A stretch of DNA of 52,568 bases, taken from positions 1 to 52,568 of the forward strand of contig NZ_JAHFUW010000032.1 in the NCBI RefSeq assembly GCF_023264855.1, read 5' to 3'. A program made the position numbers and the translations under genes. Each line of letters starts with the position of its first letter. Within the stretch, counting starts at the first letter, position 1. The notes beneath the pieces were generated by a model that saw nothing but the letters and a program-made list of their open reading frames with translations, was not told the DNA's origin and did not search any database. This DNA comes from Herbiconiux sp. GTDB lineage: Bacteria > Actinomycetota > Actinomycetes > Actinomycetales > Microbacteriaceae. Of this stretch, positions 14,895 through 34,969 are shown in pieces.

Positions 14895-14913
14895 CCGTCG
14901 CAATATGGGACAG
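14895..14913. promoter_or_regulatory. Palindrome site 1 of a three-site family (AcoR-like regulon candidate)
   Basis: CCGTCGCA-ATA-TGGGACAG between the divergent BVMO and thiolase-like genes. It shares CAA-T/G-ATGGGACAG with site 2 (24767-24785). An additional CTGTCC at 14891-14896 gives a second, wider pairing with GGGACAG. It matches the model CTGTCCCA-N3-TGGGACAG with 6 of 8 on the left and 8 of 8 on the right. Confidence 0.5.
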
Positions 14914-14947
14914 CCCGGCCGGATGCCCGTCGACGATCGGTGAGACT

Positions 14948-16150
14948 GTGGCCGTGCCCCAGCAACGAACAGGCGACGACGCCGTGATCTCCGGTGTCGG
15001 CCTCACCCCCTTCAGCCGCGATGCGGGGCTCGGCGCCCTCGATCTGCAGGCCACGGCCGCGTACCAGGCGCTCGACGACGCGGGCCTTCTCGCTCGCGAC
15101 GTCGACACGGTGATCGCGGGCTACGCGACGACGGTGAACCACATCATGCCGGCCAACGTTCTGGCCGAATACCTCGGCGCCCGGCCCGCGCGGGCCTTCG
15201 GGATGAGCGTGGGCGGGGCCACCGGACTGGCGATGGTGGCCGAGGCGGCTCGGCTAATGCGCGCCGGGGTCGCCACGCACGTGCTGGTGGTGGGCGGCGA
15301 GAACCGGGCCAGCGGGCAGAGCCGCGACCAGGCGATCGCGACGCTCGCGCAGGTGGGGCACGCCTCGCACGAGGTGGTGCTGGGGGCGAACATCCCCGCG
15401 TACTACGCGCTGCTGGCCTCGGAGTACCTGGCGCGGTTCGGGCTGTCGCGGGCGGATCTGGCGCCGCTGGCCGTGCAGATGCGCGCGCACGCGGTGTCGC
15501 ATCCGGGAGCCCAGTTCCGCACCCCGATCACGGTGCAGGACGTGCTCGACGCCCCGCCGATCGCCGAGCCCCTCGGCCTGCTCGACTGCTGCCCCATGTC
15601 GGACGGAGCGGCGGCAGTCGTGGTGTCGCGCGCCCCTGCCTCGCCTTCGGGCCGAGCGTCGGTGCGGATCGCGGGGCTCGGGCAGGCGAACCTGCACCAA
15701 CACGTGAGCGAGGCCGACTTCGGGGCGTTCGGGGCGGGGGAGAGCTCGGCGGCGGCGCTCGCCGAAGCGGGGACGGGAGTGGGCGAGCTCGACATCCTCG
15801 GTGTCTACGACAGCTTCACCATCACGCTCGCGATCTTGCTCGAGGAGATCGGGATCGTCGCGCCGGGTACCGCGGGGCGGCGGGCTTCCGAGGGCCTGTT
15901 CGCGGCGGACGGCCGCTATCCGCTGAACCTGCACGGCGGGCTGCTCTCGTACGGGCACTCCGGTGTGGCCGGCGGGATGGCGCATCTCGTGGAGATGGTG
16001 ACCCAGCTGCGCGGCGAGGCGGGGGCGCGGCAGCTGGCCGACCTGCCCCGGAAGGGATTGCTGCACGCCGACGGTGGCGTGCTCTCGGCCCACGTGTCGG
16101 TGGTGCTGGAGGGTGCGCCGGCAGAGGCTTCGAGAGGAGACCGGGCATGA
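14948..16150 (+). CDS. Thiolase-like (SCP2/lipid-transfer type) protein without the nucleophilic cysteine
   Basis: 400 residues from GTG 14948. The fold signature is present: AVISGVGLTPFSRDAGLGAL at the N-terminus, LLDCCPMSDGAAAVVVSR in the middle and HGGLLSYGHSGVAGGMAHLV near the end with the conserved GH. Where true thiolases have the acyl-accepting Cys before a glycine-rich helix, this protein reads FGMSVGGATGLAMVAEA, with no Cys. This resembles thiolase-like aldolases or ligases that act with a DUF35 partner. The next gene is DUF35 and overlaps by 4 nt. A carbon-carbon cleaving (retro-aldol) or joining role on a CoA ester is likely; the exact reaction is inferred. Confidence 0.75.
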   Translation: MAVPQQRTGDDAVISGVGLTPFSRDAGLGALDLQATAAYQALDDAGLLARDVDTVIAGYATTVNHIMPANVLAEYLGARPARAFGMSVGGATGLAMVAEAARLMRAGVATHVLVVGGENRASGQSRDQAIATLAQVGHASHEVVLGANIPAYYALLASEYLARFGLSRADLAPLAVQMRAHAVSHPGAQFRTPITVQDVLDAPPIAEPLGLLDCCPMSDGAAAVVVSRAPASPSGRASVRIAGLGQANLHQHVSEADFGAFGAGESSAAALAEAGTGVGELDILGVYDSFTITLAILLEEIGIVAPGTAGRRASEGLFAADGRYPLNLHGGLLSYGHSGVAGGMAHLVEMVTQLRGEAGARQLADLPRKGLLHADGGVLSAHVSVVLEGAPAEASRGDRA

Positions 16151-16521
16151 CTGTGGACGCCGACTGGACCACGGGGGAGCCGCGGCTGTTCGCCCAGCGC
16201 TGCCCCGAAGGGCACGCCTGGTACCTGCCCCGCCTGCGCTGCCCCCGGTGCGCCGCCGTCGTGAGCACGTTCGAGCCGAGCGGATGCGGCATCGTGTTCG
16301 CGCAAACCAGCCTGCATCGCCGGGTCGCGGCATCCGGAGACCCGGCCGGCCCGAAAGCCAAGGAGGCGATCGGCATCGCGCTGGTCGATCTCGACGAAGG
16401 AGTACGGATGATGGTGCGGTGCGTTCCCGGAACCCCGGTCGGGGCACGGGTTCAGGTGTCGATCGAGTTCGACGAGGGCTCTCAGCGGCTGCTGCCGTTC
16501 TGCGCGGAGGTGACGGCATGA
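16147..16521 (+). CDS. DUF35 zinc-ribbon/OB-fold protein, partner of the thiolase-like protein
   Basis: 124 residues. The N-terminus has a rubredoxin-like zinc ribbon (RCPEGHAWYLPRLRCPRC); the first knuckle is C-x3-H instead of the usual C-x2-C. The rest forms the short beta-rich OB fold (GIALVDLDEGVRMMVRCVPG, GARVQVSIEFDEG). Such proteins bind CoA intermediates and form complexes with thiolase-superfamily subunits, as in archaeal HMG-CoA synthase/thiolase and steroid side-chain aldolases. It overlaps the genes on both sides by 4 nt (ATGA), so stoichiometric co-translation is expected. Confidence 0.85.
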   Translation: MTVDADWTTGEPRLFAQRCPEGHAWYLPRLRCPRCAAVVSTFEPSGCGIVFAQTSLHRRVAASGDPAGPKAKEAIGIALVDLDEGVRMMVRCVPGTPVGARVQVSIEFDEGSQRLLPFCAEVTA

Positions 16522-18680
16522 GCGGCGGCACCGGCAGCGGCCTGCGCTTCTTCCACGATCCCGCCTCGGTGGCGGTGATCGGCGCCTCCAGCGATCCGGA
16601 GAAGATCGGCGGGCGGCCCATCCGGTATATGCGCGAAAGCGGATATACCGGTGCGATCTATCCGATCAACCCGACGCGCCCCGAGATCCAGGGGCTGCCG
16701 GCCTACGCTTCGCTCGACGACCTGCCTCAGGTGCCCGAGGTCGCCATCATCGCCGTCTCCGGTGCGACGGCCGTGGCGCAGATCGTGCGCTGCGCCGAGC
16801 TGGGTGTGAAGGGCTGCGTGATCATGGCGTCCGGCTTCGGCGAGACCGGCGACGAGCAGGGGCTCGCCTGGCAGCGCGAGATGCTCGACGCCGCGGCCCG
16901 ATCCGGGATGCGTCTGATCGGTCCCAACTCGCAGGGCCTCGCGAACTTCGCCACCGGTGCCGTGCTGAGCTTCTCGACGCTGTTCACCGAGCAGCCGCCC
17001 GCCGACGGCGCGGTGGCCGTGGTGAGCCAGAGCGGGGCGATGTGCTCGATTCCTTACGGGCTGCTGCGCGAGGCCGGCATCGGTGTGCGCTACGCCCATG
17101 CGACGGGCAACGACATCGACGTGACGGCCGCCGAGCTCGCGGCCGAGGTGGTGGCCGACCCCGAGGTGAAGCTGCTGCTGCTCTACCTGGAGGACATCGC
17201 CGACCTCGACTCGCTCGGCGCCGTCGCACGCACGGCGCTTTCCCGGGGCGTACCCGTGGTGGCTCTCAAAGGCGGCCGCAGCGAGGCCGGACAGCGGGCC
17301 GCGGCCTCGCACACCGGAGCTCTCGCGACCGAAGACGCCGTGGTCGACGCCTTCCTCAGCAAGCACGGCATCTGGCGGGCACGCAGCACGCGCGACCTCG
17401 TGGCGGCGGCCGCGTTCTACCTGCGGCCGGGCGTTCCGCGGGGCGAGCGGCTGGCGATCGTGAGCAACTCCGGCGCCGTCTGCGTGCTGGCCGCCGACGC
17501 GGCCGCCGAGGAAGGTCTGCCGCTGGCGCCGCTCTCGGCCGGGACCCGCGCCGCCCTGACGGATGCTCTGCCCTCGTTCGCCTCGGTCGAGAACCCGGTC
17601 GACGTGACCGCCGCCCTGCTCACCGACAGCTCGCTGTTCGGCAAGGTGCTGCCGGTACTCGGCCGGGATGCCGCGGTCGACGCCTGCCTGGTGGGCATCC
17701 CGGTCGCCGGCCGTGGTTATGACGTCGAGCGTTTCGCCTCCGACGTGGCTGAGTTCGAGGTGTCGACCGCGGTGCCGGTCGTGATGGCCGTGCCGCAGAC
17801 ATCCGTGGCCCGCGTGTTCCGCGAGCGCGGGATCGTGGTGTTCGCCGATGAGGCCGAGGCCGTGCACGCGCTCGCCCAGTACCTGCGGCACCACACGCTC
17901 ATCGCCGAGGCCCGTGCCCGCCTGGACTCCGGATGCCTCGACCCGCGCCCGCGCGACCGCCGGTCCGAGGCCGGCCCCGGCCTTGCCCGCACCGCGCTCA
18001 ACGAGTCGCAGAGCCTGCGGCTGCTGGAGACCGTGGGCGTGCCGGCCGTCGAGCACGTGCTGGTGTCGCATCCGTCGGAGGTGACGGCCGCGCTGGCGGC
18101 GCTCGGGGTCGACCGCGTCGTGATCAAAGGATGCTCGTCCGAGGTCACCCACAAGTCGGAGCTGGGCCTCGTGCGCGTAGGCGTCCCGGCGGACGACGCC
18201 GCGGCTGTCGTGACCGAGATGATCGCCACGATGGCCCGCGAGGGCGTGGCCTCCGAGGGCGTGATCCTGGCCCGGATGGTGAAGGGCGAGCACGAGGGCA
18301 TGCTCGGGGCGCGCTTCGACCCGGTGTTCGGCCCGGTCGTGGTGATCGGCGCCGGCGGCATCCACGTGGAGGCGATGCCCGACGTGCAGCTGCTGCTGCC
18401 CCCGTTCTCGCGGGAGGACGCGCTCGGCGCCATCCGGCGCCTGCGTCTGGCAGCGGTTCTCGGCGGCGTGCGCGGCGCGCCCCCCGTCGACCTCGACGCC
18501 TGGGCCGACGCCGCGGTCGCCCTCGGCGCCGCGATGCTCGACCCCGCCCTGGGCCTCCTGGAGGTCGACCTCAATCCAATCATGCTGCTGCCCCTGAACG
18601 GCCCCGAGCACCCCGCACTCCGAGCGGTCGACGCCGTGGTGGTCCGCGCAGCTCCCGCCCCTGACCTCCCCTACCGCTGA
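16518..18680 (+). CDS. NDP-forming acyl-CoA synthetase (acetate-CoA ligase family), fused subunits
   Basis: 720 residues from ATG 16518, overlapping the DUF35 stop. Domain order: CoA-binding Rossmann domain (residues about 10-135; SVAVIGASSDPEKIGGRPIR), succinyl-CoA-ligase-like domains (about 150-450; VVSQSGAMCS, and the phospho-histidine motif ASHTGALATEDAVVDAF), and a C-terminal ATP-grasp domain (about 490-705; VVIKGCSSEVTHKSELGLV and FGPVVVIGAGG). It converts a carboxylate plus CoA and NTP to acyl-CoA, NDP and phosphate, or the reverse. Placed with a thiolase-like/DUF35 pair, it probably activates a pathway acid before carbon-carbon cleavage. Its stop codon lies in a large hairpin shared with the LysR gene. 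Confidence 0.9.
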   Translation: MSGGTGSGLRFFHDPASVAVIGASSDPEKIGGRPIRYMRESGYTGAIYPINPTRPEIQGLPAYASLDDLPQVPEVAIIAVSGATAVAQIVRCAELGVKGCVIMASGFGETGDEQGLAWQREMLDAAARSGMRLIGPNSQGLANFATGAVLSFSTLFTEQPPADGAVAVVSQSGAMCSIPYGLLREAGIGVRYAHATGNDIDVTAAELAAEVVADPEVKLLLLYLEDIADLDSLGAVARTALSRGVPVVALKGGRSEAGQRAAASHTGALATEDAVVDAFLSKHGIWRARSTRDLVAAAAFYLRPGVPRGERLAIVSNSGAVCVLAADAAAEEGLPLAPLSAGTRAALTDALPSFASVENPVDVTAALLTDSSLFGKVLPVLGRDAAVDACLVGIPVAGRGYDVERFASDVAEFEVSTAVPVVMAVPQTSVARVFRERGIVVFADEAEAVHALAQYLRHHTLIAEARARLDSGCLDPRPRDRRSEAGPGLARTALNESQSLRLLETVGVPAVEHVLVSHPSEVTAALAALGVDRVVIKGCSSEVTHKSELGLVRVGVPADDAAAVVTEMIATMAREGVASEGVILARMVKGEHEGMLGARFDPVFGPVVVIGAGGIHVEAMPDVQLLLPPFSREDALGAIRRLRLAAVLGGVRGAPPVDLDAWADAAVALGAAMLDPALGLLEVDLNPIMLLPLNGPEHPALRAVDAVVVRAAPAPDLPYR

Positions 18681-18733
18681 CTTGCGAGTTCTGGCTCCAC
18701 ATCAGGCAGATCAGAGCCAGAACTCGCAACTCA
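18678..18733. terminator. 16-bp perfect palindrome spanning both stop codons of convergent genes
   Basis: Arms TTGCGAGTTCTGGCTC (18682-18697) and GAGCCAGAACTCGCAA (18714-18729) are perfectly complementary with a 16-nt loop. After one mismatch (18681/18730) the two stop codons, TGA 18678-18680 and TCA 18731-18733 (TGA of LysR), also pair. Bidirectional terminator is the simplest reading. Confidence 0.7.
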
Positions 18734-19645
18734 ACGGGAGGGGTGCGAGTGCAGGGTGTCGTGGATCGCGGCGGTGACCGTGCGGCGCAGCCAGGCGTGG
18801 GCGAGGTCGGCGCCGAGACGGCGGTGCCAGGCGAGCACGACGGGAACCGGCGGGAGGTCGACGGGCAGGGCGAAGGCACGCAGCTCGGCCGCGCCGGCGC
18901 GGCCTCGGGAGACCGACGAGGGTACGACCACGACCGCATCCGCCGCCCGCACGATCTGCAGAGCCGCCCCGGTGGAGGCGACGGAGGCGATGACCCGTCG
19001 ACTCAGGCCGAGCGGTTCCAGCGCGTCGTCGACCCTGTCGCGCAGCCGCCCGCGGCGCGAGACCACGACGTGCAGAGCTGACGCGAAGGCCGCCAGGTCG
19101 ACGTGCTGCGGCACAGCGCTGCCGGATGCTCTGGCCAGCCCGAGGAGGTGGTCGTCGGCCACGTGCTCGTGAGCCACATCGGCGGGCCCGGCGGTGCTCG
19201 AACCGACCTCGAGGTCGATCGTGCCCCGGGCCAGATCGACGGTGTCGCCCGCCGATTCACCCAGGAAGCGGAACGATACCCCTGGTGCCACGCGGGCGGA
19301 CTCCGCCACCAGGGCGGGAGCGAGGGCCGCGGCGAGCGCATCGTGGCAGCGCACGGTGAAGGTGCGCTGCAGCGTTCCGAGGTCGAGGTCGCTCTCCGGC
19401 GTCAGCACGGCTTCACTGCGGAGCACCAGGGCGCGCACCTCCTCGCGCATCGACAGCGCTCGCGGAGTGGGGATCATCCGCCGGCCGGATCGCACCAGGA
19501 TCGCGTCGCCGGTGGCCCGCCGGATGCGGCCGAGGCTGCGGCTCATGGCCGGCTCCGAGAGGTGCAACCGCTCCGCCGCACCGCTGACGCTCTCCTCTTC
19601 GAGCAGGGCGTTGAGCGCGGTGAGGAGATTCAGATCCAGTTGCAT
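18731..19645 (-). CDS. LysR-family transcriptional regulator
   Basis: 304 residues from ATG 19645 (MQLDLNLLTALNALLEEESV). Residues 1-60 are the LysR winged helix: GAAERLHLSEPAMSRSLGRI is the recognition region. Residues about 90-295 form the effector domain (RTFTVRCHDALAAALAPALV; AADAVVVVPSSVSRGRAG). The gene is divergent from the IMPase-like/reductase-like operon and very likely controls it. Its own -10 (TAGAAT) is 7 nt from the ATG, indicating a leaderless mRNA, and an ATTC-N12-GAAT inverted repeat overlaps that -10. Effector unknown. Confidence 0.85.
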   Translation of the reverse strand: MQLDLNLLTALNALLEEESVSGAAERLHLSEPAMSRSLGRIRRATGDAILVRSGRRMIPTPRALSMREEVRALVLRSEAVLTPESDLDLGTLQRTFTVRCHDALAAALAPALVAESARVAPGVSFRFLGESAGDTVDLARGTIDLEVGSSTAGPADVAHEHVADDHLLGLARASGSAVPQHVDLAAFASALHVVVSRRGRLRDRVDDALEPLGLSRRVIASVASTGAALQIVRAADAVVVVPSSVSRGRAGAAELRAFALPVDLPPVPVVLAWHRRLGADLAHAWLRRTVTAAIHDTLHSHPSR

Positions 19646-19652
19646 GAGGGTA

Positions 19653-19672
19653 ATTCTACTGATGCGCGGAAT
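19653..19672. promoter_or_regulatory. Candidate LysR-binding inverted repeat and LysR -10 box
   Basis: ATTC (19653-19656) and GAAT (19669-19672) form an inverted repeat with 12-nt spacing in the divergent LysR/IMPase-like intergenic DNA. On the minus strand TAGAAT (19653-19658) is the LysR -10, 7 nt before its ATG. Site assignment rests on position and symmetry only. Confidence 0.35.
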
Positions 19673-19676
19673 GTCT

Positions 19677-19705
19677 TTGACGTTATTCGGGGGTGCTCTT
19701 AGCGT
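19677..19705 (+). promoter_or_regulatory. Sigma-A-type promoter of the IMPase-like operon
   Basis: TTGACG (19677-19682) and TAGCGT (19700-19705) are separated by 17 nt, a good housekeeping-type promoter reading toward the IMPase-like gene, with an untranslated leader of about 45 nt. Confidence 0.6.
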
Positions 19706-19755
19706 GGAATCACCGCCCGGAACGACCGGCGGCAGAACAGCGGGACAGGATGACC

Positions 19756-20568
19756 ATGAACGACAGGGTGCTCGCACCGGACACCGGCCGGATGCTCGAG
19801 GAGACGACGGCCGCCGTGCAGGCAGCGGGCCGGGTGCTGCTCGATCGATTCTCGCCGGCCCTGCGCGTGACTGACGCCCGATCGCTGCTCGCCGCGATCG
19901 AGGCCAACGACACCACCTCCCTGGCCGTGCTGCGACCGGCCCTCGAGCGCGTGCGGCCGGAGGCGCGCTGGGACGACGACGAGGAGGGTCGCGGCAGTCT
20001 CGGCCCGGGCGAGTGGTGGGTGGCGGATGCCGCCGAGGGCAACGTGAACCACATCCACGGGGCGAACGGCTGGGGGGTCACCGCCACCCTCGTGCGCGAC
20101 GCCCTGCCCGTGCTGACCGTGGTGCACCTGCCCGTCTCGGGGGAGACGTACACGGCTGTCGCAGGAGAAGGCGCCTTCCGGAACGGCGAGCGGCTGGCGG
20201 TGTCCGCCAAGACGGAGCTGCGGGCGGCGCTGGTCGGCACGGGGCAGGGGATGCCCGGGGAGGAGCCCGCGATCCGTCGGCGGATGAGCGCCTCCCTCGA
20301 CGCGATGCTCGACCGGGCCCTGCTGGTCTCCGCCGGGGTTCCGGCGACCCTGCAGATCCTGCCGGTCGCGGCCGGCCACGCCGACGCGTTCTGGCAGTAC
20401 GGGCAGATCCGCTCGGGGCTCGTCGCCGGCGCCCTGCTCGTGCGGGAGGCCGGCGGCGCCGTGCTCGACCTCGACGGCTCCCCCTGGACCCTGGCCGGTG
20501 AGGGGTTCGTCGCCTCCGCGCCGGGCCTGGCCGCGGAGGTCGTCGACGTGCTGTCGGCCATCCGCTGA
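19756..20568 (+). CDS. Inositol monophosphatase-like protein with altered metal-site motifs
   Basis: 270 residues from ATG 19756 (GGGACAGG upstream; ATG 19750 is an alternative). The overall pattern is of the Mg-dependent IMPase/FBPase-like superfamily, but the hallmark WVIDPLDGTTNFxHG reads WVADAAEGNVNHIHG, losing the DPxDGT metal/catalytic triad. The second motif, usually W-D-x-A(A/G)-G, reads QIRSGLVAGALLVREAGG without the Asp. The upstream acidic stretch WDDDEEGRG survives. Catalysis by the usual mechanism is doubtful, so it may bind rather than hydrolyse a phosphorylated ligand, or use other residues. It is followed 64 nt later by a reductase-like gene and is divergent from LysR. Confidence 0.7.
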   Translation: MNDRVLAPDTGRMLEETTAAVQAAGRVLLDRFSPALRVTDARSLLAAIEANDTTSLAVLRPALERVRPEARWDDDEEGRGSLGPGEWWVADAAEGNVNHIHGANGWGVTATLVRDALPVLTVVHLPVSGETYTAVAGEGAFRNGERLAVSAKTELRAALVGTGQGMPGEEPAIRRRMSASLDAMLDRALLVSAGVPATLQILPVAAGHADAFWQYGQIRSGLVAGALLVREAGGAVLDLDGSPWTLAGEGFVASAPGLAAEVVDVLSAIR

Positions 20569-21283: not shown

Positions 21284-22045
21284 CTACACGATCGTCCAGC
21301 CTCCGTCGATGACGTAGGCGGCGCCGTGCACGAAGTCGGACTCGGGGCCCGCGAGGAACAGCGCGAGATTCGCGATCTCCTCGGGCTGCGCGTGACGGCC
21401 GGCGGGGACGGCGTTGATCGACTCGATCACCGCGGCCTCACCATCTTCGAGGATCTTCTTGGTCATCGCCGTCTCCACCGCGCCGGGGCAGATCGCGTTC
21501 ACGCGCACGCCCTGCAGGCCGTAGTCGGCGGCGAGCTGCTTGGTGAGCCCCACCACGCCGTGCTTGGCCGAGGTGTAGGCGGTTCCGCCGCCGCGCGCCA
21601 CGAAGCCGGCGATCGACGCCATGTTCACGATCGTGCCGCCGCCTCCTTCGAGCATCGTCGGCAGCGCCGCCTTCGTCACCAGGAAGACGCCCTTGAGGTC
21701 GACGCCGATGATCCGGTCCCAGAGCTCTTCGCTGGTGTCGAGGATGGGCGCGTAGCCGTCGAGGATGCCCGCGATGTTCGCCAGCACGTCCACCCCGCCG
21801 AGCGCCGCCACGCTCTGCTCGATCGCCGCGGTCACCGAGGCGCTGTTCGAGACGTCGACCTGCACGGCGTGCGCCGATCCGCCCGCCTCGCGGATCGACG
21901 CGGCCGTGGCCTCCGCCGCCGCCGGATCGAGGTCGAGCGCGGCCACCGCCGCCCCCTCGGCTGCGAACCGCTGCGCGATTGCGCGGCCCATGCCCGAGCC
22001 GGCTCCGGTGACGACGGCTTTGCGTGCGTCGAGTTTTCCTGTCAT
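21284..22045 (-). CDS. SDR family oxidoreductase
   Basis: 253 residues, the standard length for a classical SDR. Motifs: VVTGAGSGMGRAIAQRFA, Asp after strand 2 in AALDLDPAAA (NAD preference), NIAG in place of NNAG, IVNMASIAG with the catalytic Ser, YTSAKHG, and the C-terminal YVIDGGWTIV. It is the last gene of the ADH-ALDH-SDR operon on this strand, 45 nt after the ALDH stop. In a ring-opening pathway it could oxidise the starting alcohol to the ketone used by the BVMO. That is inferred from neighbours, not visible in the protein. Only 12 nt separate its stop from the convergent reductase gene. Confidence 0.85.
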   Translation of the reverse strand: MTGKLDARKAVVTGAGSGMGRAIAQRFAAEGAAVAALDLDPAAAEATAASIREAGGSAHAVQVDVSNSASVTAAIEQSVAALGGVDVLANIAGILDGYAPILDTSEELWDRIIGVDLKGVFLVTKAALPTMLEGGGGTIVNMASIAGFVARGGGTAYTSAKHGVVGLTKQLAADYGLQGVRVNAICPGAVETAMTKKILEDGEAAVIESINAVPAGRHAQPEEIANLALFLAGPESDFVHGAAYVIDGGWTIV

Positions 22046-22090: not shown

Positions 22091-23551
22091 CTACGGCCGG
22101 GTCAGCCCCGCCAGCGAGATGTACTTCGTGTCCATGTACTCCTCCATGCCCCAGTGGCCGCCCTCGCGGCCGATGCCGCTCTCCTTCACGCCGCCGAACG
22201 GCGCCTGCACGGCCGAGATGGTGCCGTCGTTCGCGCCGACGGTGCCGTACTGCAGCGCCTCGGAGACGCGCACCACGCGGTTCACGTCGCGGGTGAAGAA
22301 GTAGGCGGCGAGCCCGTACGGGGAGTTGTTCGCGCGGCGCACGACCTCCTCCTCGGTGTCGAACTCGAAGATCGGGGCCACCGGGCCGAAGGTCTCGTCG
22401 CGGGCGACGAGCATGTCGTCGGTCACCCCGGTGAGCACGGTCGGCTCGTAGAAGTGCCCGTTCGCCAGCGACTCGTGGGTGGGCCGCTTGCCGCCGGTGG
22501 CGACCGAGGCCCCGGATGCCACGGCATCCGCCACGTGCGCCTCCACCTTCTGCACGGCCGCGTCTTCGATCAGCGGGCCCACCTCGACGCCCTCCTCGGA
22601 GCCCAGCCCGATCGGCATCGCCGACAGGCGCTCCACCAGGCGGCGGGTGAACTCGGGCGCGATGCCGCGCTGAACGAAGATGCGGTTGGCCGACACACAC
22701 GTCTGCCCCATGTTGCGCATCTTCACGGCCACCAGCTGCTCGAGCGCGTGGTCGACGTCGGCGTCGTCGAACACGATGAACGGCGCGTGGCCGCCGAGCT
22801 CGAGCGAGAGCCGCTTCATGGTGGCGGCGCCCTCGCGCATCAGGATCTTGCCCACCTCGGTCGATCCGGTGAACGAGAGCACCCGCACCCGGCTGTCGGC
22901 CATGATCGTGGGGCTCACCCGCGAGGCCTTCGACGAGGTGACGACCTGCAGCACACCGGCCGGCAGTCCCGCCTCGGCGAAGAATCGGCCGATCTCCAGC
23001 GCCGAGATCGGCGTGAGGGCAGCGGGCTTCACCACCATCGAGCAGCCGGCGGCCAGGGCGGCACCGAGCTTGCGCAGGATCTGCAGCGAGGGGAAGTTCC
23101 ACGGCGTGATCGCCACACTCACCCCGGCGGCCTGGCGGATGGCGGTGATCCGCTTGTCCGGACCGGTCGAGGGCACGGTCGTGCCGTAGGTGCGGCGGCC
23201 CTCCTCGGCGAACCACTCGAGGAAGTCGAGGCCGTAGTTCAGCTCGCCGATCGACTGCGCGACGGGCTTGCCGTGTTCGGCGGTCATCACCTCGGCCAGC
23301 CGCTGGATGTCGGCTCGGGCGATCTCGGCGGCCCGGCGGATGATCTTCGAACGCTCCAGCGCAGGCAGCGCGGCCCAGGCCGGCTGCGCGGCCTCGGCGC
23401 CGTCGATCGCGCGGGTCATGTCGTCGGCGTTCGCGTCGGCGACCCGGGCGATCTCGAGGCCGGTGGCCGGGTCGAGCACCGGGAAGGTCTCGCCCGCGGC
23501 CGCATCCTGCCAGGTGCCGTCGATGAACAGTTTGGTGAGGTAGTCGGTCAT
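22091..23551 (-). CDS. NAD(P)-dependent aldehyde dehydrogenase (succinate-semialdehyde dehydrogenase-like)
   Basis: 486 residues, the usual length. The active site is complete: VAITPWNFPSLQILRK (Asn holding the oxyanion), LELGGHAPFIVF (general-base Glu), and GQTCVSANR (nucleophilic Cys). EVGPLIEDAAVQKVEAHV and FGGVKESGIGREGG are typical of the GabD/semialdehyde dehydrogenase branch. It oxidises an aldehyde (semialdehyde) to an acid. It lies between the zinc alcohol dehydrogenase and an SDR, all on one strand, consistent with sequential alcohol to aldehyde to acid oxidation. Confidence 0.9.
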   Translation of the reverse strand: MTDYLTKLFIDGTWQDAAAGETFPVLDPATGLEIARVADANADDMTRAIDGAEAAQPAWAALPALERSKIIRRAAEIARADIQRLAEVMTAEHGKPVAQSIGELNYGLDFLEWFAEEGRRTYGTTVPSTGPDKRITAIRQAAGVSVAITPWNFPSLQILRKLGAALAAGCSMVVKPAALTPISALEIGRFFAEAGLPAGVLQVVTSSKASRVSPTIMADSRVRVLSFTGSTEVGKILMREGAATMKRLSLELGGHAPFIVFDDADVDHALEQLVAVKMRNMGQTCVSANRIFVQRGIAPEFTRRLVERLSAMPIGLGSEEGVEVGPLIEDAAVQKVEAHVADAVASGASVATGGKRPTHESLANGHFYEPTVLTGVTDDMLVARDETFGPVAPIFEFDTEEEVVRRANNSPYGLAAYFFTRDVNRVVRVSEALQYGTVGANDGTISAVQAPFGGVKESGIGREGGHWGMEEYMDTKYISLAGLTRP

Positions 23552-23611: not shown

Positions 23612-24700
23612 TCAGAACACGATCGAGGCGCGCGCCACGCTGCGCGACTCGCCGGCCGCGATCGCCGCGCCGATGTCGTCGAACGGATGAGCGTCGGCCG
23701 TGAGCGCCTCGAACGGGTACCGGTGCTGCGTGCGCACCAAGAAGTCCAGCGCCCGGTTCAGGTACCAGGGGTCGTACCGCAGCACGCCGTGGATGTTCAG
23801 GCTCTTGCGGGTGATCACGCCGGGAGAGAGCGACACCTCGAAGGCCTCGCCCACGTTGAGGTTGCCCACCGAAAGGATCTCGCCGCCGGTGCGCGCGAGG
23901 CCCACGGCCTCGGTGAAGGCGGGGGCGAATCCGGTGACCTCGAGCACGACGTCGGCGCCCTGCCCGCCGGTGAGCTCTTGAACGCGCGCGATCCGCTCGT
24001 CGCTGGTGGTGTACTCGCCGAGGTCGACCACCTCGTCGGCACCGAACCGGGTGGCGAGGGCGATGCGCTCGGGCACGCCGTCGACCACGATCACGCGGGC
24101 GCCGCGCTCCTTGGCCACGGCGACGGCGTAGAGGCCGAGTCCGCCGGCGCCCTGCACCACGAGGGTGCCGCCCGCGCCCAGGCGGGTGCGGTCCAGCGCG
24201 AAGATCATCTGGGCCAGACCGCAGTTGGCGCCGGCGACGATCTGGTCGTCGAGCTCGTCGGGCACGGTGAAGAAGTACTGGTCTTCGTTCACGTAGTAGT
24301 GGGTGCTGAAGCCGCCGGTGAAGTGCGGGGCGCGATCGGGGTTCTTCGACCACTCCCGCAGCGAGTTCTGGCACATGCCGAAGTCGCCGCGCAGGCACGC
24401 GGGGCAGCGCCGGCAGGTGACGTAGTAGACCGGAACGACCCGGTCGCCGATCGCCACGGGGCGGCCGGCGTTGTCGTGCGTGACGCCGTCACCGAGGGCC
24501 GTCACCTCGCCCACGAACTCGTGGCCGAGCACGGCTTCCCGCAGGGCGGGGGAGTCGCCGTGGTACTGGTGCAGGTCGCTGCCGCACACGTTCGCCCGGC
24601 GCACCTTCAGCACCAGCGCGCCGGCGGCCGGATCCGGAACCTCGTACTCCTTGACCTCGAACTGCCTGGGCCCGACGACGGCGGTCACTCTGCCTTGCAC
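23612..24700 (-). CDS. Zinc-dependent alcohol dehydrogenase (MDR family)
   Basis: 362 residues. GTG 24700 is chosen because GGAG lies 6 nt upstream; open sequence further upstream overlaps the divergent MBL gene and is not coding. Catalytic zinc ligands are in ANVCGSDLH and GHEFVG, and the structural zinc loop is CRRCPACLRGDFGMC. The cofactor fold GAGGLGLYAVAVAKERGA is followed by VIVVDG (Asp, NAD preference). It oxidises an alcohol to an aldehyde or ketone. It is the first gene of an operon with ALDH and SDR, and a palindromic site (24767-24785) lies in its promoter region, shared with the MBL-fold hydrolase. Confidence 0.88.
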   Translation of the reverse strand: MQGRVTAVVGPRQFEVKEYEVPDPAAGALVLKVRRANVCGSDLHQYHGDSPALREAVLGHEFVGEVTALGDGVTHDNAGRPVAIGDRVVPVYYVTCRRCPACLRGDFGMCQNSLREWSKNPDRAPHFTGGFSTHYYVNEDQYFFTVPDELDDQIVAGANCGLAQMIFALDRTRLGAGGTLVVQGAGGLGLYAVAVAKERGARVIVVDGVPERIALATRFGADEVVDLGEYTTSDERIARVQELTGGQGADVVLEVTGFAPAFTEAVGLARTGGEILSVGNLNVGEAFEVSLSPGVITRKSLNIHGVLRYDPWYLNRALDFLVRTQHRYPFEALTADAHPFDDIGAAIAAGESRSVARASIVF

Positions 24701-24766
24701 CCGATGCTCCTTTGCCTGGGACGATGACCCGATAGTAGGCAGTGCGGGAGGGGGCATCCGGGGCCC

Positions 24767-24785
24767 CTGACCCAAGATGGGACAG
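24767..24785. promoter_or_regulatory. Palindrome site 2 of the three-site family
   Basis: CTGACCCA-AGA-TGGGACAG is a near-perfect 19-bp palindrome (7 of 8 arm positions pair) between the divergent ADH operon and MBL-fold hydrolase gene. It is the best representative of the CTGTCCCA-N3-TGGGACAG model shared with 14895-14913 and 34951-34969. Confidence 0.6.
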
Positions 24786-24862
24786 GCCCCGGGGCGCGCA
24801 GATCCCCGGCGGCAGACTGGCTCCCAGTACGACGACGTACCCCGCGAAAGGAGCGATCTCGA

Positions 24863-25648
24863 ATGACTCACGGACACGCGCGCCGCCTCTGGGCCCTGGA
24901 TGCCCCCACCCTCACGGTGCAGTCGGAGACCCTGCTGTACGGCACGAGCGGGGAGGTCACCATCCCGTGCCCCTCGTTCCTGATCGAACACGATCGAGGC
25001 CTCGTGCTCTTCGACACGGGACTGCACCCGGATGCCATCACCGACCCCGAGAAGATCTACGGCTCCGAGCTGGCTCCGCTGCTGGGCATCGGCGGAACGC
25101 GTGAGCAGCGGCTCGACGTGCAGATCCAGAACCTCGGCTACAAGCTCTCCGACATCACGCACGTCATCTCCTCGCACGGGCACTTCGACCACACCGGTGG
25201 GCTCTTCCTCTTCCCCGAGGCCAAGCACTACTTCGGTGAGGGGGAGCTGCGCTATGCGAACTGGCCCGACCCCATCCAGGCCTTCGTGTACCGGCAGGAG
25301 GTGCTCGACGTCATCAAGCGGCTCGACACGCGCGAGCTCGTGGGCGATCACGACCTCTTCGGCGACGGGGCCATCGAGGTGCTCGCCACGCCGGGGCACA
25401 GCCCGGGCGAGGTCAGCCTGGTCGTGCGCCTGGCCAACCGCACCTTCATCCTCACCGGCGACGCCCTGCACCTGCGGGCCCAGCTCGAGCAGGAGTACCA
25501 CTTCCCGATCGACGCCGACACGAAGACGGCGCTGCGCTCGCTCCGGCGCCTGAAGTACCTCAAGGAGAGCCTCGAGGCCACGGTGTGGATCAGCCACGAT
25601 CCGGATGACTGGGCCGAGTTCGCGCACGCGCCCGGCTTCTACGAGTAG
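24863..25648 (+). CDS. Metallo-beta-lactamase-fold hydrolase (AHL-lactonase-like family)
   Basis: 261 residues starting MTHGHARRLWALD, with AAAGGAG about 10 nt upstream. The dinuclear zinc site is complete: HxHxDH in SSHGHFDHTGG, His in TPGHSPGEVS, Asp in LTGDALH and a terminal His in WISHDPDDW. Overall length and layout match the N-acyl-homoserine-lactonase branch (AttM/AiiA-like) of the superfamily, which opens lactone rings. Placed divergent from an alcohol dehydrogenase and sharing its operator candidate, it could hydrolyse the lactone or ester made by the BVMO. Quorum quenching is the alternative. Family call is firm; substrate is inferred. Confidence 0.8.
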   Translation: MTHGHARRLWALDAPTLTVQSETLLYGTSGEVTIPCPSFLIEHDRGLVLFDTGLHPDAITDPEKIYGSELAPLLGIGGTREQRLDVQIQNLGYKLSDITHVISSHGHFDHTGGLFLFPEAKHYFGEGELRYANWPDPIQAFVYRQEVLDVIKRLDTRELVGDHDLFGDGAIEVLATPGHSPGEVSLVVRLANRTFILTGDALHLRAQLEQEYHFPIDADTKTALRSLRRLKYLKESLEATVWISHDPDDWAEFAHAPGFYE

Positions 25649-26136: not shown

Positions 26137-26143
26137 TTAGGTA
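26132..26143 (+). promoter_or_regulatory. Leaderless-type -10 box of the siderophore-interacting protein gene
   Basis: CATAAT (26132-26137) is followed by 6 nt and then ATG 26144, so transcription would start on the A of the start codon. The box overlaps the stop codon of the FmdB-type gene. Confidence 0.45.
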
Positions 26144-26155
26144 ATGCTTACCTAT
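26137..26155. promoter_or_regulatory. Iron box (DtxR/IdeR operator) of the siderophore uptake operon
   Basis: TTAGGTAATGCTTACCTAT matches the DtxR/IdeR consensus TWAGGTWAGSCTWACCTWA at 17 of 19 positions. It overlaps the predicted transcription start and the first codons of the siderophore-interacting protein gene, an arrangement that would block transcription when iron is plentiful. Confidence 0.85.
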
Positions 26156-30121: not shown

Positions 30122-30131
30122 CCTACGATGA

Positions 30132-31204: not shown

Positions 31205-31220
31205 TGCCGGCTGCTCTGTG

Positions 31221-31362: not shown

Positions 31363-31384
31363 CGGGATGCCGGCGGGGGTTGTG

Positions 31385-31461: not shown

Positions 31462-31463
31462 AG

Positions 31464-31832: not shown

Positions 31833-31844
31833 GTTTGCAATCTA
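31833..31844 (-). promoter_or_regulatory. Leaderless-type -10 box of the ArsR gene
   Basis: On the minus strand TAGATT (31839-31844) stands 6 nt before ATG 31832, overlapping the first operator copy. Confidence 0.45.
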
Positions 31845-31879
31845 GCACAAGAGCTAATTACAGTGTAGCTTCGTTGCTA
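31843..31879. promoter_or_regulatory. Two direct copies of a TAGC-N6-GCTA palindrome, ArsR operator candidate
   Basis: TAGCACAAGAGCTA (31843-31856) and TAGCTTCGTTGCTA (31866-31879) share the same 4-6-4 palindrome with 23-bp spacing, about two helical turns apart. They fill the divergent ArsR/epimerase-like promoter region and overlap the ArsR -10. Confidence 0.6.
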
Positions 31880-31899
31880 ATAAGCGAAGGAGAGACATC

Positions 31900-32829
31900 A
31901 TGCGGGTAGCGATCACCGGGGGAACCGGATTCGTGGGGCGGCACCTCGCCGAGCGGCTCGGCGCGGAGCAGACGGTGATCGTCTCGCGCCGCACCGGCGT
32001 CGAGATCGACGACGTGGACGCGCTCGCCGCAGCGTTCGCCGGCTGCGACGCCGTGGCGCACTGCGCGGGCATCAATCGCGAGATCGGCGGCCAGACCTTC
32101 GAGCGCGTGCACGTCGCCGGCACCCGTGCCGTGATCGAGGCCGCACGGCGCGCCGGGGTGAAGCGCATCGTGATGCTCAGCTTCCTGCGCGCCCGGCCGG
32201 ACTGCGGATCGGCCTACCACGAGACGAAGTGGGCCGCCGAAGAGCTGCTGCGGCACTCGGGCCTGGAGTACACCGTGCTCAAGGCCGGCATGATCTACGG
32301 CCCGGGCGACCACATGGTCGATCACGTCACCAAAGCGGTGCGCACCCTTCCGGTCTTCGCCACCGTCGGTTACCGCGAACGCCTGGTGCGGCCGGTCCCC
32401 ATCGAGGATGCGGTCGACGTGCTCGTCGCCGCTCTCGAGGGCCGGATCGCCGAGCCCACCGTCGCGGTGATGGGCGCGGAAACGCTCACTCTCGGCGAGG
32501 CCGTGCGCCGCATCGCCCGCGTGGCCGACCGACGGCCGGTCTTCTTCCCGGTGCCGGTGTGGAGCATCCGTGCCCTCGCCCAGCTCACCGAGTGGACCAT
32601 GCGCACACCGCTCGTGGCGAAGGCCCAGGCGACGATGCTGGCCGAGGGCGTCAACGAACCCCTCCCGTACGCCCCCGAACTCCCGGAAGCGCAGCGCCCC
32701 GCCCGCCCCTTCACCGAGGCCCGCATCCGCGCAGCCCTCCCCGCAGGCCCCTTCACCCGAGCCGACCTCCGCCTCCCGATAGCCTGCCGAGTCCCCAGGG
32801 CAGCACCCGTCTCAGCGCCCCCGGTCTGA
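31900..32829 (+). CDS. NAD(P)-binding epimerase/atypical SDR protein
   Basis: 309 residues from ATG 31900 with GAAGGAGAG just upstream. The N-terminal cofactor motif is VAITGGTGFVGRHLAERL, then DDVDALAAAFAGCDAVAHCA and SAYHETKWAAEELLRHSG with the Tyr-x3-Lys pair, as in extended/atypical SDRs of the NmrA or complex-I-39-kDa-like group. The C-terminal 40 residues are Pro/Arg/Ala-rich. It is divergent from and probably repressed by the ArsR-type regulator. The pair sits between inverted copies of the 142-bp repeat. Substrate unknown. Confidence 0.8.
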   Translation: MRVAITGGTGFVGRHLAERLGAEQTVIVSRRTGVEIDDVDALAAAFAGCDAVAHCAGINREIGGQTFERVHVAGTRAVIEAARRAGVKRIVMLSFLRARPDCGSAYHETKWAAEELLRHSGLEYTVLKAGMIYGPGDHMVDHVTKAVRTLPVFATVGYRERLVRPVPIEDAVDVLVAALEGRIAEPTVAVMGAETLTLGEAVRRIARVADRRPVFFPVPVWSIRALAQLTEWTMRTPLVAKAQATMLAEGVNEPLPYAPELPEAQRPARPFTEARIRAALPAGPFTRADLRLPIACRVPRAAPVSAPPV

Positions 32830-32855
32830 GCCCCCCCCGGGTCTGAGCGCACGAA

Positions 32856-32997
32856 GTCTCAGGCCGTACCCGACGACCCAGGGTGAGGGCGTGGCCGCGA
32901 AGCGACCGCACCCGAACATGTCGCCTCGCGCCGGGCGGGGACCGGCGCGACCGCGAGAGGCCCCTCGCCGCAGGCGAGAGGTCTCTCGCGCAGCTAG
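32856..32997 (-). repeat. 142-bp repeat, copy B (inverted relative to copy A)
   Basis: The reverse complement of 32856-32997 matches 31221-31362 at 132 of 142 positions without gaps. Two of the differences in the first stem arm (A-A to C-G) are matched by compensating changes in the opposite arm (T-T to C-G), so the stem is kept. Its CTAG start overlaps the TAG stop of the AcoR-like regulator gene, so like copy A it lies directly behind a gene and in the same relative orientation. Confidence 0.9.
32953..32989 (-). terminator. Stem-loop terminator after the AcoR-like gene (part of repeat copy B)
   Basis: A 17-nt arm at 32953-32969 (GCGAGAGGCCCCTCGCC) and its partner at 32973-32989 pair at 15 of 17 positions plus one wobble, loop GCA. 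It begins 4 nt after the regulator stop codon. Confidence 0.75.
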
Positions 32998-34805
32998 ATA
33001 AACAAGCGTTCCTCGTCGAGCTTGTAGCCGCTGATCTTGCGGTACAGCGTGCTGCGGGAGATGCCGAGCATCTCGGCGGCCAGCACCTTGTTGCCGAAGC
33101 AGCGGATGAGCGCGTTGATGATGCCGTCGACCTCGAGCTGCTCGAGCATGGTGAGGTCGCGGCGGCGCGAGTAGGCGGCGATCGCGGGCGGAAGCTGGTC
33201 GATCGTCACCTCGGTGCGCCGGCCGAGCGCGAACACGCCGCGCATCACGGAGTCGAGCTGGCGCAGGTTGCCCGGCCAGGGCGCCCGCGAGAGCGCCGTG
33301 TAGGCGCCCTGGGTGTAGCTGATGCTCACCGCCGAGGCGTACTTGCGCTCGAACACGTGCAGCAGGCTGCGCATGTCCTGCTTGCGCTCGCGCAGGTTGG
33401 GCATGTCGATGCGGCCGACCGCGATCAGATCCAGCAGCGCCTGATGCCCCGAGCCGAGCGCTTTCGATCCCTGTGCCCCGGCCGTGCCGAGCACGAGCCC
33501 GCGGGCCAGCAGCGCGGGGGAGGCGGCGAGCAGGTCGGCGACGCGCTGGGCATCTGCATCCTCCAGGCCGTCCAGGTGCCGGAAAACGATCGGGGTGCGC
33601 CCCTCGAGCGCGGCCGTCAGCCCGGCGAACCAGGTCTCGGGATCGCGGTGCGAGTCCTGCCCCTCGAACACGAGGGGTGTCTGCCGCGGGGCCACCCGGT
33701 CGAGCATGTGGCGCAGCAGCGTGAACTTGCCGGTGCCGGGTGCCCCGAACACCACGACGGGCAAGGATGCGCGCATCGCCGACTCCGCCTGCTCGCGGGC
33801 GTACACCCAGGCCTGGCTGGTACCGGGCAGCGAGTCGGCCAGCGGCGGCCAGTTCGCCGAGGCCGGCGCCGGTGTGATGGGGATCAGTGGCTCGGTATGG
33901 ATCTGCTGCACCACCTCCACGATCGCGCCGATCATCTCGTCGTCGAACATCACGGCCGAACAGGCGAGCTCGGTGATGGCCGACTCGGTCTCCAGTCGAA
34001 CGGTGCTCTTCGGGCGCGCGGCCGAGATCGACTCGGACACGATCATCCACAGCGTCGACTTGTCGATGTGGTGCAGGTACTCGCTCGCCGAGGGGTTCTC
34101 CATCAGCAGGTCGCCGCCCACCACGGCCACCGCCCGGCCGAGCCGTGAGGCGCTGAGGAAGGCGTCGAACAGCACCCGCTCGCGCATGCTCGAGAGGTTC
34201 ACGAGCTGGCGCCCCACCTCGCGGGCGGCCTGGTTGATCAGGCTGGGCAGGATGGGACTGGCATCCTGCACCAAGGCGGTCAACGTCACCACGCCCTCTG
34301 ACCGCCCCGTGATCGGGTTGTGGATGGGCGCTCCCACGCAGGCGAAGTCGGTGAGCACGTCGGCGATGTGCTCGGCTCCCACGATCATGCCGGCCTTCTT
34401 GTCGGCCGCGGGGGTGCCGATGCCGTTGGTTCCCACGAGCTCCTCGGCGCCGGAGTGTCCGGGCACCGATCCGACCCGTTCCAGGCGCCGGGCCAGGTTC
34501 TGGTTCGAGATCCAGGTCTCCAGGATGCGGGCGTGCCGGTCGGCCACGAGCAGGCTGGCGTTGCTCATGCCGAGCTCGTCGGCGAGGTTCGTGAGGATCG
34601 GCCGGGCAGCGCGCAGCAGCACCGAGTCGCTCACGATCGGGGATTCGAACGGCAGTCGGCCGGAGCGGCTGGGCGAGCCGAAGCCGCGGGATCGCTTCCA
34701 CGATTCCAGCACGATCGGCCGAACGAGCTGCTCCATCCGGAGGTCGAGTTTGCCGTCGTTCAGAAAGGTGTCGCGCAGATCATCGAGTCTCGGGTTGGAG
34801 GGCAT
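32994..34805 (-). CDS. AcoR/DhaR-like activator: GAF - AAA+ - Fis HTH
   Basis: 603 residues. Order: a GAF-type sensory region (about 70-240; GMSNASLLVADRHARILETW and GAEELVGTNGIGTPAADKKA), an AAA+ sigma54-interaction-like domain (about 340-530; Walker A FGAPGTGKFTLLR, late APWPGNLRQLDSVMRG), and a Fis-type helix-turn-helix at the C-terminus (ALIRCFGNKVLAAEMLGISR, then STLYRKISGYKL). The GAFTGA loop that contacts sigma54 is absent, as expected in actinomycetes, which lack sigma54; relatives there act with other sigma factors. ATG 34805 has AAGGAGT upstream. It is divergent from an ABC importer, with a palindromic site between. Confidence 0.85.
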   Translation of the reverse strand: MPSNPRLDDLRDTFLNDGKLDLRMEQLVRPIVLESWKRSRGFGSPSRSGRLPFESPIVSDSVLLRAARPILTNLADELGMSNASLLVADRHARILETWISNQNLARRLERVGSVPGHSGAEELVGTNGIGTPAADKKAGMIVGAEHIADVLTDFACVGAPIHNPITGRSEGVVTLTALVQDASPILPSLINQAAREVGRQLVNLSSMRERVLFDAFLSASRLGRAVAVVGGDLLMENPSASEYLHHIDKSTLWMIVSESISAARPKSTVRLETESAITELACSAVMFDDEMIGAIVEVVQQIHTEPLIPITPAPASANWPPLADSLPGTSQAWVYAREQAESAMRASLPVVVFGAPGTGKFTLLRHMLDRVAPRQTPLVFEGQDSHRDPETWFAGLTAALEGRTPIVFRHLDGLEDADAQRVADLLAASPALLARGLVLGTAGAQGSKALGSGHQALLDLIAVGRIDMPNLRERKQDMRSLLHVFERKYASAVSISYTQGAYTALSRAPWPGNLRQLDSVMRGVFALGRRTEVTIDQLPPAIAAYSRRRDLTMLEQLEVDGIINALIRCFGNKVLAAEMLGISRSTLYRKISGYKLDEERLFI

Positions 34806-34950
34806 GACGGGATACTCCTTGCATTGAACACATCGTTGGGATCAATAGCGTCGCGAGGGCACGCGGGTGACTCATTACAGCACGCGCGCGGGGCTGTGTC
34901 GCTGGTCCGCTTCTTGCATTTTCGTCTCGATCCGAAGGCGCCGGGGCGCA

Positions 34951-34969
34951 GTGTCCCGTTATGACACAG
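34951..34969. promoter_or_regulatory. Palindrome site 3 of the three-site family
   Basis: GTGTCCCG-TTA-TGACACAG on the plus strand (minus: CTGTGTCA-TAA-CGGGACAC) lies between the AcoR-like gene and the ABC importer. It keeps GGGACA and the outer CTGT of the model CTGTCCCA-N3-TGGGACAG, with the same 8-3-8 geometry as sites 1 and 2, and contains a perfect GTGTC-N7-GACAC. Confidence 0.45.

What the first reader, a model, noticed from the sequence alone, without database searches (positions are those of the whole stretch)
14895..34969. One 8-3-8 palindrome in three divergent promoter regions: a candidate AcoR-like regulon
The sequences at 14895-14913, 24767-24785 and 34951-34969 all fit CTGTCCCA-N3-TGGGACAG. 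Sites 1 and 2 share CAA(T/G)ATGGGACAG at 12 of 13 positions. Each site lies between divergent genes: BVMO operon and thiolase-like operon, ADH operon and MBL-fold hydrolase, AcoR-like activator and ABC importer. This ties import, oxidation, hydrolysis and CoA activation genes spread over 20 kb to one regulator. Established: AcoR/DhaR-type activators bind inverted repeats upstream of catabolic operons. The link of this palindrome to the 32994-34805 protein is inference.
Basis: partly seen in the sequence, partly recalled or inferred. Interest (0 to 1): 0.8.

Follow-up and report, generated by a model that had tools for sequence, protein, structure and literature searches.

The report
AcoR-like activator and its DNA operator
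Three short mirror-image DNA sites in a plant-associated bacterium mark the promoters of one breakdown pathway and are very probably the docking sites of the pathway's own switch protein, a type of switch that seems to use the same kind of docking site in a good part of its relatives.

Summary
Conservation decides. All three recur at orthologous places in Herbiconiux ginsengi, H. oxytropis, Cnuibacter physcomitrellae and Cryobacterium sp. Y50. The five promoters keep near-fixed site-to-"-10" distances (31 or 37-41 bp) and poor -35 boxes. In Cryobacterium's draft genome the BVMO and thiolase operons lie on different contigs, and each has the site. The link to the AcoR-like protein gains independent support: TGTCYCA-N3-TGRGACA lies upstream of 10 of 23 distinct GAFTGA-less AcoR-like regulators, about 0.1 expected; among clusters not used to set the consensus, 7 of 19. 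The other 13 of 23 lack it. Best reading: the 603-residue protein binds a 17-bp operator beside the -35 region and activates a sigma70-type catabolic regulon (import, BVMO, lactonase-like, dehydrogenases, CoA ligase, thiolase). The regulon is a new member of a known kind; ten library searches showed no account of the shared operator.

The parts
14895..14913 (.). operator site 1 (17-bp core 14896-14912), between the BVMO operon and the thiolase operon
   Evidence: 2 of 16 mismatches; 15 of 17 core columns identical in 4 genomes against 45% outside the site; in Cryobacterium at both the thiolase operon (C75) and the BVMO operon (C34)
24767..24785 (.). operator site 2 (17-bp core 24768-24784), between the Zn-ADH operon and the MBL-fold lactonase-like gene
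   Evidence: 1 of 16 mismatches; 14 of 17 core columns identical in 4 genomes; present in 5 genomes
34951..34969 (.). operator site 3 (17-bp core 34952-34968), between the AcoR-like gene and the ABC importer
   Evidence: 4 of 16 mismatches here, 3 in H. oxytropis; 13 of 17 core columns identical in 4 genomes
14942..14947 (+). putative -10 (GAGACT) of the thiolase operon; start GTG at 14954 would make the transcript leaderless
   Evidence: conserved in 5 genomes; site centre to -10 is 31 bp in 4 relatives, 38 here; the -10 role is inferred
14862..14867 (-). putative -10 (GATGAT) of the BVMO operon
   Evidence: 37 bp from the site centre in the window, H. ginsengi, H. oxytropis, Cnuibacter and Cryobacterium contig C34; role inferred
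24732..24737 (-). putative -10 (TACTAT) of the Zn-ADH operon
   Evidence: 39 bp from the site centre in 4 of 5 genomes; not found in Cryobacterium
24813..24818 (+). putative -10 (CAGACT) of the MBL-fold gene
   Evidence: 31 bp from the site centre in 4 relatives, 37 here
35001..35006 (+). putative -10 (GATGCT) of the ABC importer operon
   Evidence: 40-41 bp from the site centre in 5 of 5 genomes
32994..34805 (-). AcoR/DhaR-like regulator: GAF-like N-terminus, degenerate AAA+ with Walker A but no GAFTGA, Fis-type HTH_8
   Evidence: Pfam AAA_lid_14 and HTH_8, no PF00158; best NCBIfam DhaR, far below its cut-off; no GAFTGA
9080..10462 (-). iron-containing ADH, glycerol dehydrogenase-like
   Evidence: below the NCBIfam cut-off
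10464..11288 (-). SDR oxidoreductase
11294..12271 (-). transketolase C-terminal subunit
12264..13160 (-). transketolase N-terminal (ThDP) subunit
13165..14820 (-). flavin monooxygenase, Baeyer-Villiger type (inferred from its best NCBIfam hit, below cut-off)
   Evidence: in the same 3 of 16 genus genomes as the regulator
14954..16150 (+). thiolase-like protein
   Evidence: start inferred from the alignment
16147..16521 (+). small protein; the Cnuibacter gene at the corresponding place is annotated OB-fold
   Evidence: no NCBIfam hit
16620..18680 (+). ADP-forming acyl-CoA ligase (true start may lie upstream)
21284..22045 (-). SDR oxidoreductase
22091..23551 (-). aldehyde dehydrogenase, succinate-semialdehyde dehydrogenase-like
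   Evidence: 582.5 bits against a cut-off of 646
23612..24700 (-). zinc alcohol dehydrogenase
24863..25648 (+). MBL-fold hydrolase, AHL-lactonase/4-pyridoxolactonase-like
   Evidence: 140 bits against a cut-off of 390; Cnuibacter orthologue annotated N-acyl homoserine lactonase family
34992..36098 (+). ABC permease, BPD_transp_2 (likely start GTG 35038)
   Evidence: start read from the alignment
37559..40186 (+). ABC ATPase-permease fusion, ribose/AI-2 type
40220..41080 (+). luciferase-like F420-dependent oxidoreductase

Best explanation
The three palindromes are operators of the AcoR/DhaR-like protein encoded at 32994-34805. The protein senses a pathway compound through its N-terminal GAF-like region. 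As a dimer it grips a 17-bp dyad, TGTCYCA-N3-TGRGACA and variants, through its Fis-type HTH_8 domains. The dyad lies centred 31 or 37-41 bp upstream of the -10 hexamer, that is near -43 or -52, beside or over a poor -35 box. It lacks the GAFTGA loop and the genome shows no sigma54, so it should recruit or stabilise sigma70-family RNA polymerase rather than remodel a sigma54 complex. One protein would thus switch on, as a unit, import (ABC), ketone to lactone or ester (BVMO), lactone opening (MBL lactonase-like), alcohol and aldehyde oxidation (Zn-ADH, SSADH-like ALDH), CoA activation and thiolysis. Shown: the sites, their conservation, the spacing to conserved hexamers, and the association with part of the regulator family. 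Inferred: the -10 roles, binding, activation, ligand and substrate.
For: Sites conserved at orthologous places in 4 further genomes. Site-to--10 distance kept: 31 bp for thiolase and MBL in 4 relatives each, 40-41 for ABC in 5 of 5, 39 for ADH in 4 of 5, 37 for BVMO in 5 of 5 genomes. No promoter has more than 3 of 6 matches to TTGACA at 16-19 bp from the -10 (23 promoter sequences), as expected of activator-dependent promoters. In Cryobacterium the BVMO and thiolase operons are on different contigs and each keeps the site. The LysR gene lies in a segment without a match in the relatives' compared regions. Regulator and BVMO occur in the same 3 of 16 genus genomes. Family test: consensus at 12 or more of 14 positions in the upstream region of 10 of 23 regulator clusters; coding 0 of 23; downstream 1 of 23; 400 permuted half-sites mean 0.13; other spacers 0-1. 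Resampled upstream regions: mean 0.14, maximum 1 (100 resamples), and mean 0.08, maximum 2 (60 resamples). Clusters not used to set the consensus: 7 of 19 (counted). Plasmid regulators: 6 of 15 against 0.05 expected. No sigma54 found; no GAFTGA.
Against: No binding or expression data. 13 of 23 clusters and 9 of 15 plasmid regulators lack an upstream site at that threshold. The exact perfect dyad is not enriched phylum-wide: 1 of 396 genomes, with no AcoR-like gene within the 1.5 kb held on each side, against 4 of 396 for the reversed control. In this strain the site-to--10 distances of the thiolase and MBL promoters are 38 and 37, not 31. Site 3 is poor in this strain. At sites 2 and 3 other stretches of the same intergenic regions are as conserved as the operator or more so. 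Cryobacterium's ADH promoter does not show the -10 at the usual distance.
Confidence: 0.82

Rival explanations
1. The sites are operators of another transcription factor, local or global, and the AcoR-like gene is merely one of its targets.
For: Site 3 lies upstream of the regulator gene itself, as expected of a target too; binding was not measured. Whether LysR homologues exist elsewhere in the relatives' genomes was not searched.
Against: The LysR gene (18731-19777) lies in a segment without a match in the compared regions of the relatives that keep the sites. The same dyad type is found upstream of other AcoR-like regulators in different gene settings.
Confidence: 0.1
2. The AcoR-like protein binds the sites but acts mainly as a repressor, relieved by the ligand.
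For: Sites near -43 reach the -35 region, where repressors also bind; loss of GAFTGA means the classical activation route is unavailable.
Against: The -35 boxes are poor (at most 3 of 6 to TTGACA) and site-to--10 distances are held nearly constant, as expected of an activator that touches polymerase; relatives such as DhaR and MimR activate (recalled).
Confidence: 0.1
3. The palindromes are chance look-alikes in GC-rich intergenic DNA.
For: Relaxed matches are at background genome-wide, and site 3 has 4 mismatches.
Against: Conservation at all three places in 4 other genomes, persistence when operons are apart, near-constant spacing, enrichment upstream of related regulators.
Confidence: 0.02

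Closest known systems
AcoR/DhaR-type activators (E. coli DhaR, Bacillus AcoR)
   Same: AAA+ remnant and C-terminal HTH_8; DhaR is the best NCBIfam hit and a solved DhaR fragment matches residues 29-209
   Different: GAFTGA absent; far below the DhaR cut-off, 125 against 551 bits; no sigma54 found in the genome
MimR / Fis-family regulators of actinobacterial propane monooxygenase (mim/prm)
   Same: Actinobacterial Fis-family regulator beside a monooxygenase operon; in Rhodococcus BCP1 a conserved palindrome covers the putative -35 box of prmA and such a gene is divergent to it (PMC4428276, passages read)
   Different: Different substrate class; the MimR site did not turn up in the library, so the operators could not be compared
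TyrR (E. coli)
   Same: Recalled: lacks GAFTGA, acts at sigma70 promoters, HTH_8-type, binds a TGT...ACA dyad
   Different: Recalled: ACT-PAS sensing domains and TGTAAA-N6-TTTACA boxes; both a repressor and an activator
Rhodococcus acetone carboxylase locus, RHA1 pRHL2
   Same: AcoR-like gene divergent to acetone carboxylase genes, with TGTCCCACTTTCGGACA between them
   Different: Different enzymes; regulator only 29% identical to this one

Membership tests
AcoR/DhaR-like (Fis-type) transcriptional regulators | C-terminal HTH_8 Fis-type DNA-binding domain | tested here: met
   PF02954 at residues 554-592, 44.8 bits against a cut-off of 22
AcoR/DhaR-like (Fis-type) transcriptional regulators | GAF-type N-terminal sensor region | tested here: inconclusive
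   No Pfam GAF hit; residues 29-209 match the DhaR structure 4lrx at E 0.00047
DhaR (NCBIfam NF008485) | score above the curated cut-off | tested here: not met
   125.2 bits against 551
sigma54-dependent enhancer-binding proteins | GAFTGA loop | tested here: not met
   no match to G[ASY][FYL][TS]GA in this protein or in any of the 23 cluster representatives; no PF00158 hit for this protein
sigma54-dependent enhancer-binding proteins | sigma54 present in the genome | tested here: not met
   PF04552: 0 matches in G000 (95% complete, so absence is not absolute); controls hit in 4 of 14 named genomes
sigma54-dependent enhancer-binding proteins | ATP-binding Walker A | tested here: met
   GAPGTGK present here; a G..G.GK match is missing in 12 of the 23 cluster representatives. 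A Walker B acidic pair is not seen on reading the sequence
bacterial regulon under one activator | same operator at every operon, including the regulator's own region, conserved across species | tested here: met
bacterial regulon under one activator | direct binding and dependence of expression on the regulator | not testable with these tools
   needs the bench

The most novel reading that the evidence does not exclude
GAFTGA-less AcoR-like regulators across Actinomycetes share one operator code, a 17-bp dyad TGTCYCA-N3-TGRGACA (looser: TGTCY-N7-RGACA), sometimes doubled 22-23 bp apart, and use it from near-fixed places beside the -35 region to activate sigma70-type promoters. A family descended from sigma54 machinery would thus have been rewired as a whole to ordinary promoters, with a readable operator that would predict targets of many uncharacterised catabolic regulators.
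Probability: 0.6. Interest if true: 0.65.

Novelty: new member of a known kind. Interest (0 to 1): 0.55.

Why it matters
It ties import, BVMO, lactonase-like, dehydrogenase, CoA-ligase and thiolase genes into one catabolic pathway under a single switch, which makes the unknown substrate testable. It also offers an operator rule for a large, mostly uncharacterised group of actinobacterial regulators (near acetone carboxylase, monooxygenase and other catabolic genes), usable for annotation and for inducible promoters.

Tried and rejected
Rejected: judging the motif by genome-wide counts. Relaxed patterns are at background in the own genome. With another pattern at up to 2 mismatches the forward/reverse counts against the control were: own genome 16/13 against 9/12, H. 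ginsengi 13/13 against 11/11, H. oxytropis 31/32 against 4/7 (inflated by a dispersed TGACACAAGATGTGCCAA-like repeat), Cnuibacter 7/4 against 11/5, Cryobacterium 39/25 against 22/23. Rejected: LysR (18731-19777) as the regulator, its segment having no match in the relatives' compared regions.

Led nowhere: the exact perfect dyad in 396 phylum genomes (1 hit, G806, with no AcoR-like gene in the 3 kb held); two own-genome near-matches (C40, C5), with no relative of this regulator found in the 11-15 kb around them; the other three own-genome near-matches outside the window (C33, C36, C60) were not examined. Literature searches for the MimR operator and for an actinobacterial AcoR operator did not show one. 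PMC8784404, PMC4428276 and PMC8394569 were read as passages only; all other papers were seen in listings only. MimR, AcoR, TyrR and BVMO-pathway facts without a call are recalled.

Selection told: the 23 regulator clusters come from 61 loci tried, of which 50 with a hit reaching the HTH were kept and 11 dropped; the class loci are those of the 30 returned. L080 was found through the motif, so the count without it is 9 of 22. The Y/R position was taken from genus paralogues and first used, the first scan of the class loci; the 19 clusters first fetched give 7. Of the plasmid hits I fetched 16 regions, chosen by eye for variety before scanning them; the Cnuibacter orthologue was left out of the 15. 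L118 and L120 carry the same site, and L131 carries the same site as L094, so the plasmid count is partly redundant. In the count without a consensus the dyad leads only for 6-base arms (3 regions); for 4-base arms it does not, and a coding-region 5-base pair equals its best count of 4.
Full report
Observation. The window belongs to a Herbiconiux genome: the closest named orthologues of the regulator, two of them in genomes of the window's own genus group, lie in H. ginsengi (84%) and H. oxytropis (85%), with a further one in Cryobacterium sp. Y50 (75%). Another, at 78%, lies in genome G040, which is identical over 38,985 bp to a Cnuibacter physcomitrellae plasmid. Against CTGTCCCA-N3-TGGGACAG they have 2, 1 and 4 mismatches; site 3 does not fit well. 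Two matches with up to 3 mismatches were found against 0.25 expected.

Genome-wide counts do not single the motif out. The 17-bp core with up to 2 mismatches is at background in the own genome, 7 against 10 for the control. In four relatives, searched with a slightly different pattern, the listed places with at most one mismatch are eight: six are sites 1 or 2 of this cluster (one of them in Cryobacterium), one lies beside a paralogous regulator (Cryobacterium C64), and one (Cryobacterium C59) is unexplained (the list was cut and own-genome rows were not shown).

Conservation. All three sites recur at orthologous places in H. ginsengi, H. oxytropis and Cnuibacter and, with variants, in Cryobacterium. 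In four-genome alignments of the intergenic DNA the 17-bp cores are 15/17, 14/17 and 13/17 identical, against 45, 42 and 37% outside. At site 1 no other window matches the site. At sites 2 and 3 other windows are as conserved or more so: the twelve printed for site 2 lie in the leader before the MBL gene, and those for site 3 take in the putative -10.

Synteny. In H. ginsengi and H. oxytropis the conserved blocks (9.2-18.6, 21.3-26.1 and 33-41 kb of the window) adjoin; the LysR gene with its neighbours and the siderophore genes, present in the window, have no match there. The AcoR-like gene is the regulator common to the compact cluster, though the Cnuibacter plasmid also has an IclR gene beyond the luciferase-like gene. 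BVMO and regulator occur in the same 3 of 16 genus genomes. In Cryobacterium's draft genome the BVMO operon is on contig C34 and the thiolase and other operons are on C75. No BVMO was found on the 19.5 kb of C75 held and no thiolase on C34, and each operon has its own copy of the site inside its contig, C34:7539 and C75:24512. How far apart the contigs lie is unknown.

Promoter geometry. Taking a conserved hexamer downstream of each site as -10 (inference), the distance from the dyad centre to the -10 is 31 bp for thiolase and MBL in all four relatives, 40-41 bp for the ABC operon in all five genomes, 39 bp for ADH in four of five and 37 bp for BVMO in all five. If the -10 begins at -12, the sites centre near -43 or between -49 and -53, overlapping or adjoining -35. 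The -35 boxes are poor: at most 3 of 6 matches to TTGACA in 23 promoter sequences. In this strain alone the thiolase and MBL distances are 38 and 37. The thiolase start codon sits 6 bp after the hexamer, which suggests a leaderless transcript. In Cryobacterium, where the ADH -10 is not found, a second dyad-like sequence lies closer to the ADH gene.

Regulator. It has HTH_8 and the AAA+ lid domain but no PF00158, a Walker A and no GAFTGA. The own genome, 95% complete, shows no sigma54, while the search hit 4 of 14 control genomes. So it is unlikely to work as a classical enhancer-binding protein; direct contact with sigma70-type polymerase is the natural alternative. This is inferred.

Linking protein to operator. 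Paralogues in the genus have a dyad of the same geometry nearby, for example GGTCTCAATGTGAGACG 76 bp before the start. From these I took TGTCYCA-N3-TGRGACA and then scanned regulators fetched from 148 class genomes. In one representative per 60%-identity cluster, 10 of 23 upstream regions match at 12 or more of 14 positions; coding regions 0 of 23; downstream regions 1 of 23; 400 permuted half-sites give 0.13 on average, the best (8) being the overlapping YGTCTCA; spacers 0-2 and 4-8 give 0 or 1. Resampled upstream regions give 0.14, maximum 1, in 100 resamples and 0.08, maximum 2, in 60. At 11 of 14 the figures are 11 of 23 against 1.1 expected. A count without any consensus ranks GTCTCA-N3-TGAGAC first among exact 6-base inverted pairs, with only 3 regions. 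Without L080, found through the motif, it is 9 of 22; for the clusters first fetched it is 7 of 19. Named plasmid-borne regulators give 6 of 15 against 0.05 expected, including the Rhodococcus jostii RHA1 acetone carboxylase locus. 13 of 23 clusters show no such site, so the rule is not universal or the sites vary. Some loci have two sites 22-23 bp apart.

Pathway (inference from families; most NCBIfam hits are below their cut-offs). BVMO makes a lactone or ester from a ketone; the MBL protein resembles AHL lactonase and pyridoxolactonase; Zn-ADH and an SSADH-like ALDH would oxidise the hydroxy acid; an ADP-forming CoA ligase and a thiolase finish. The ribose-type ABC importer and the split transketolase suggest a polyol, sugar-linked or glycosylated substrate. 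The substrate is unknown.

Literature. Ten searches of the open library showed no description of this operator; most subscription papers are not held and the MimR paper did not turn up. PMC4428276 reports a conserved palindrome over the putative -35 box of prmA beside a Fis-family regulator gene in Rhodococcus BCP1 (passages read), which fits.

Verdict. As a regulon it is a new member of a known kind; the operator shared within the regulator group is the more interesting outcome.

Noticed in passing
window 34806-34850, upstream of the regulator start: A block of about 35 bp (TACTCCTTGCACTTGAACACATCGTTGGGATCAATTGC on the + strand in relatives) is almost unchanged in three Herbiconiux species and Cryobacterium but absent from Cnuibacter (G040); its TTGA...TCAA ends form a dyad. 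It could be a leader element or a second operator for the regulator gene.
   Followed up: no
window 14914-14941 and 24786-24812: In this strain alone, of five genomes, both + side promoters (thiolase, MBL) have 7 and 6 more bp between operator and -10, 38 and 37 instead of 31 bp. Two parallel changes, unexplained.
   Followed up: partly
window 26137-26155: TTAGGTAATGCTTACCTAT, a 7/8 dyad at the start of a siderophore uptake cluster (FecCD, binding protein, SIP), resembles a DtxR/IdeR iron box (resemblance recalled; dyad).
   Followed up: no
H. oxytropis genome G007, many contigs: A dispersed palindromic repeat, TGACACAAGATGTGCCAA or TGACACAAGATGTGTCAA, with many copies among the listed matches; not part of this regulon.
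   Followed up: no
L116 (Cnuibacter physcomitrellae plasmid, 214,750 bp): The whole catabolic cluster is on a plasmid typed as mobilizable in this moss-associated species, with CoA-transferase, thiolase and biotin carboxylase genes beside it; the three sites are there too.
   Followed up: partly
L095, L100, L101, L113: Some AcoR-like regulators have two copies of the dyad 22-23 bp apart upstream, which would place two dimers on the same DNA face.
   Followed up: partly
L011-L017, L024: A second regulator group (about 575 aa, 30-33% identical) has a related dyad (TGYRTCRAATTGAGAYA-like) about 810-940 bp upstream, presumably at a neighbouring operon.
   Followed up: no
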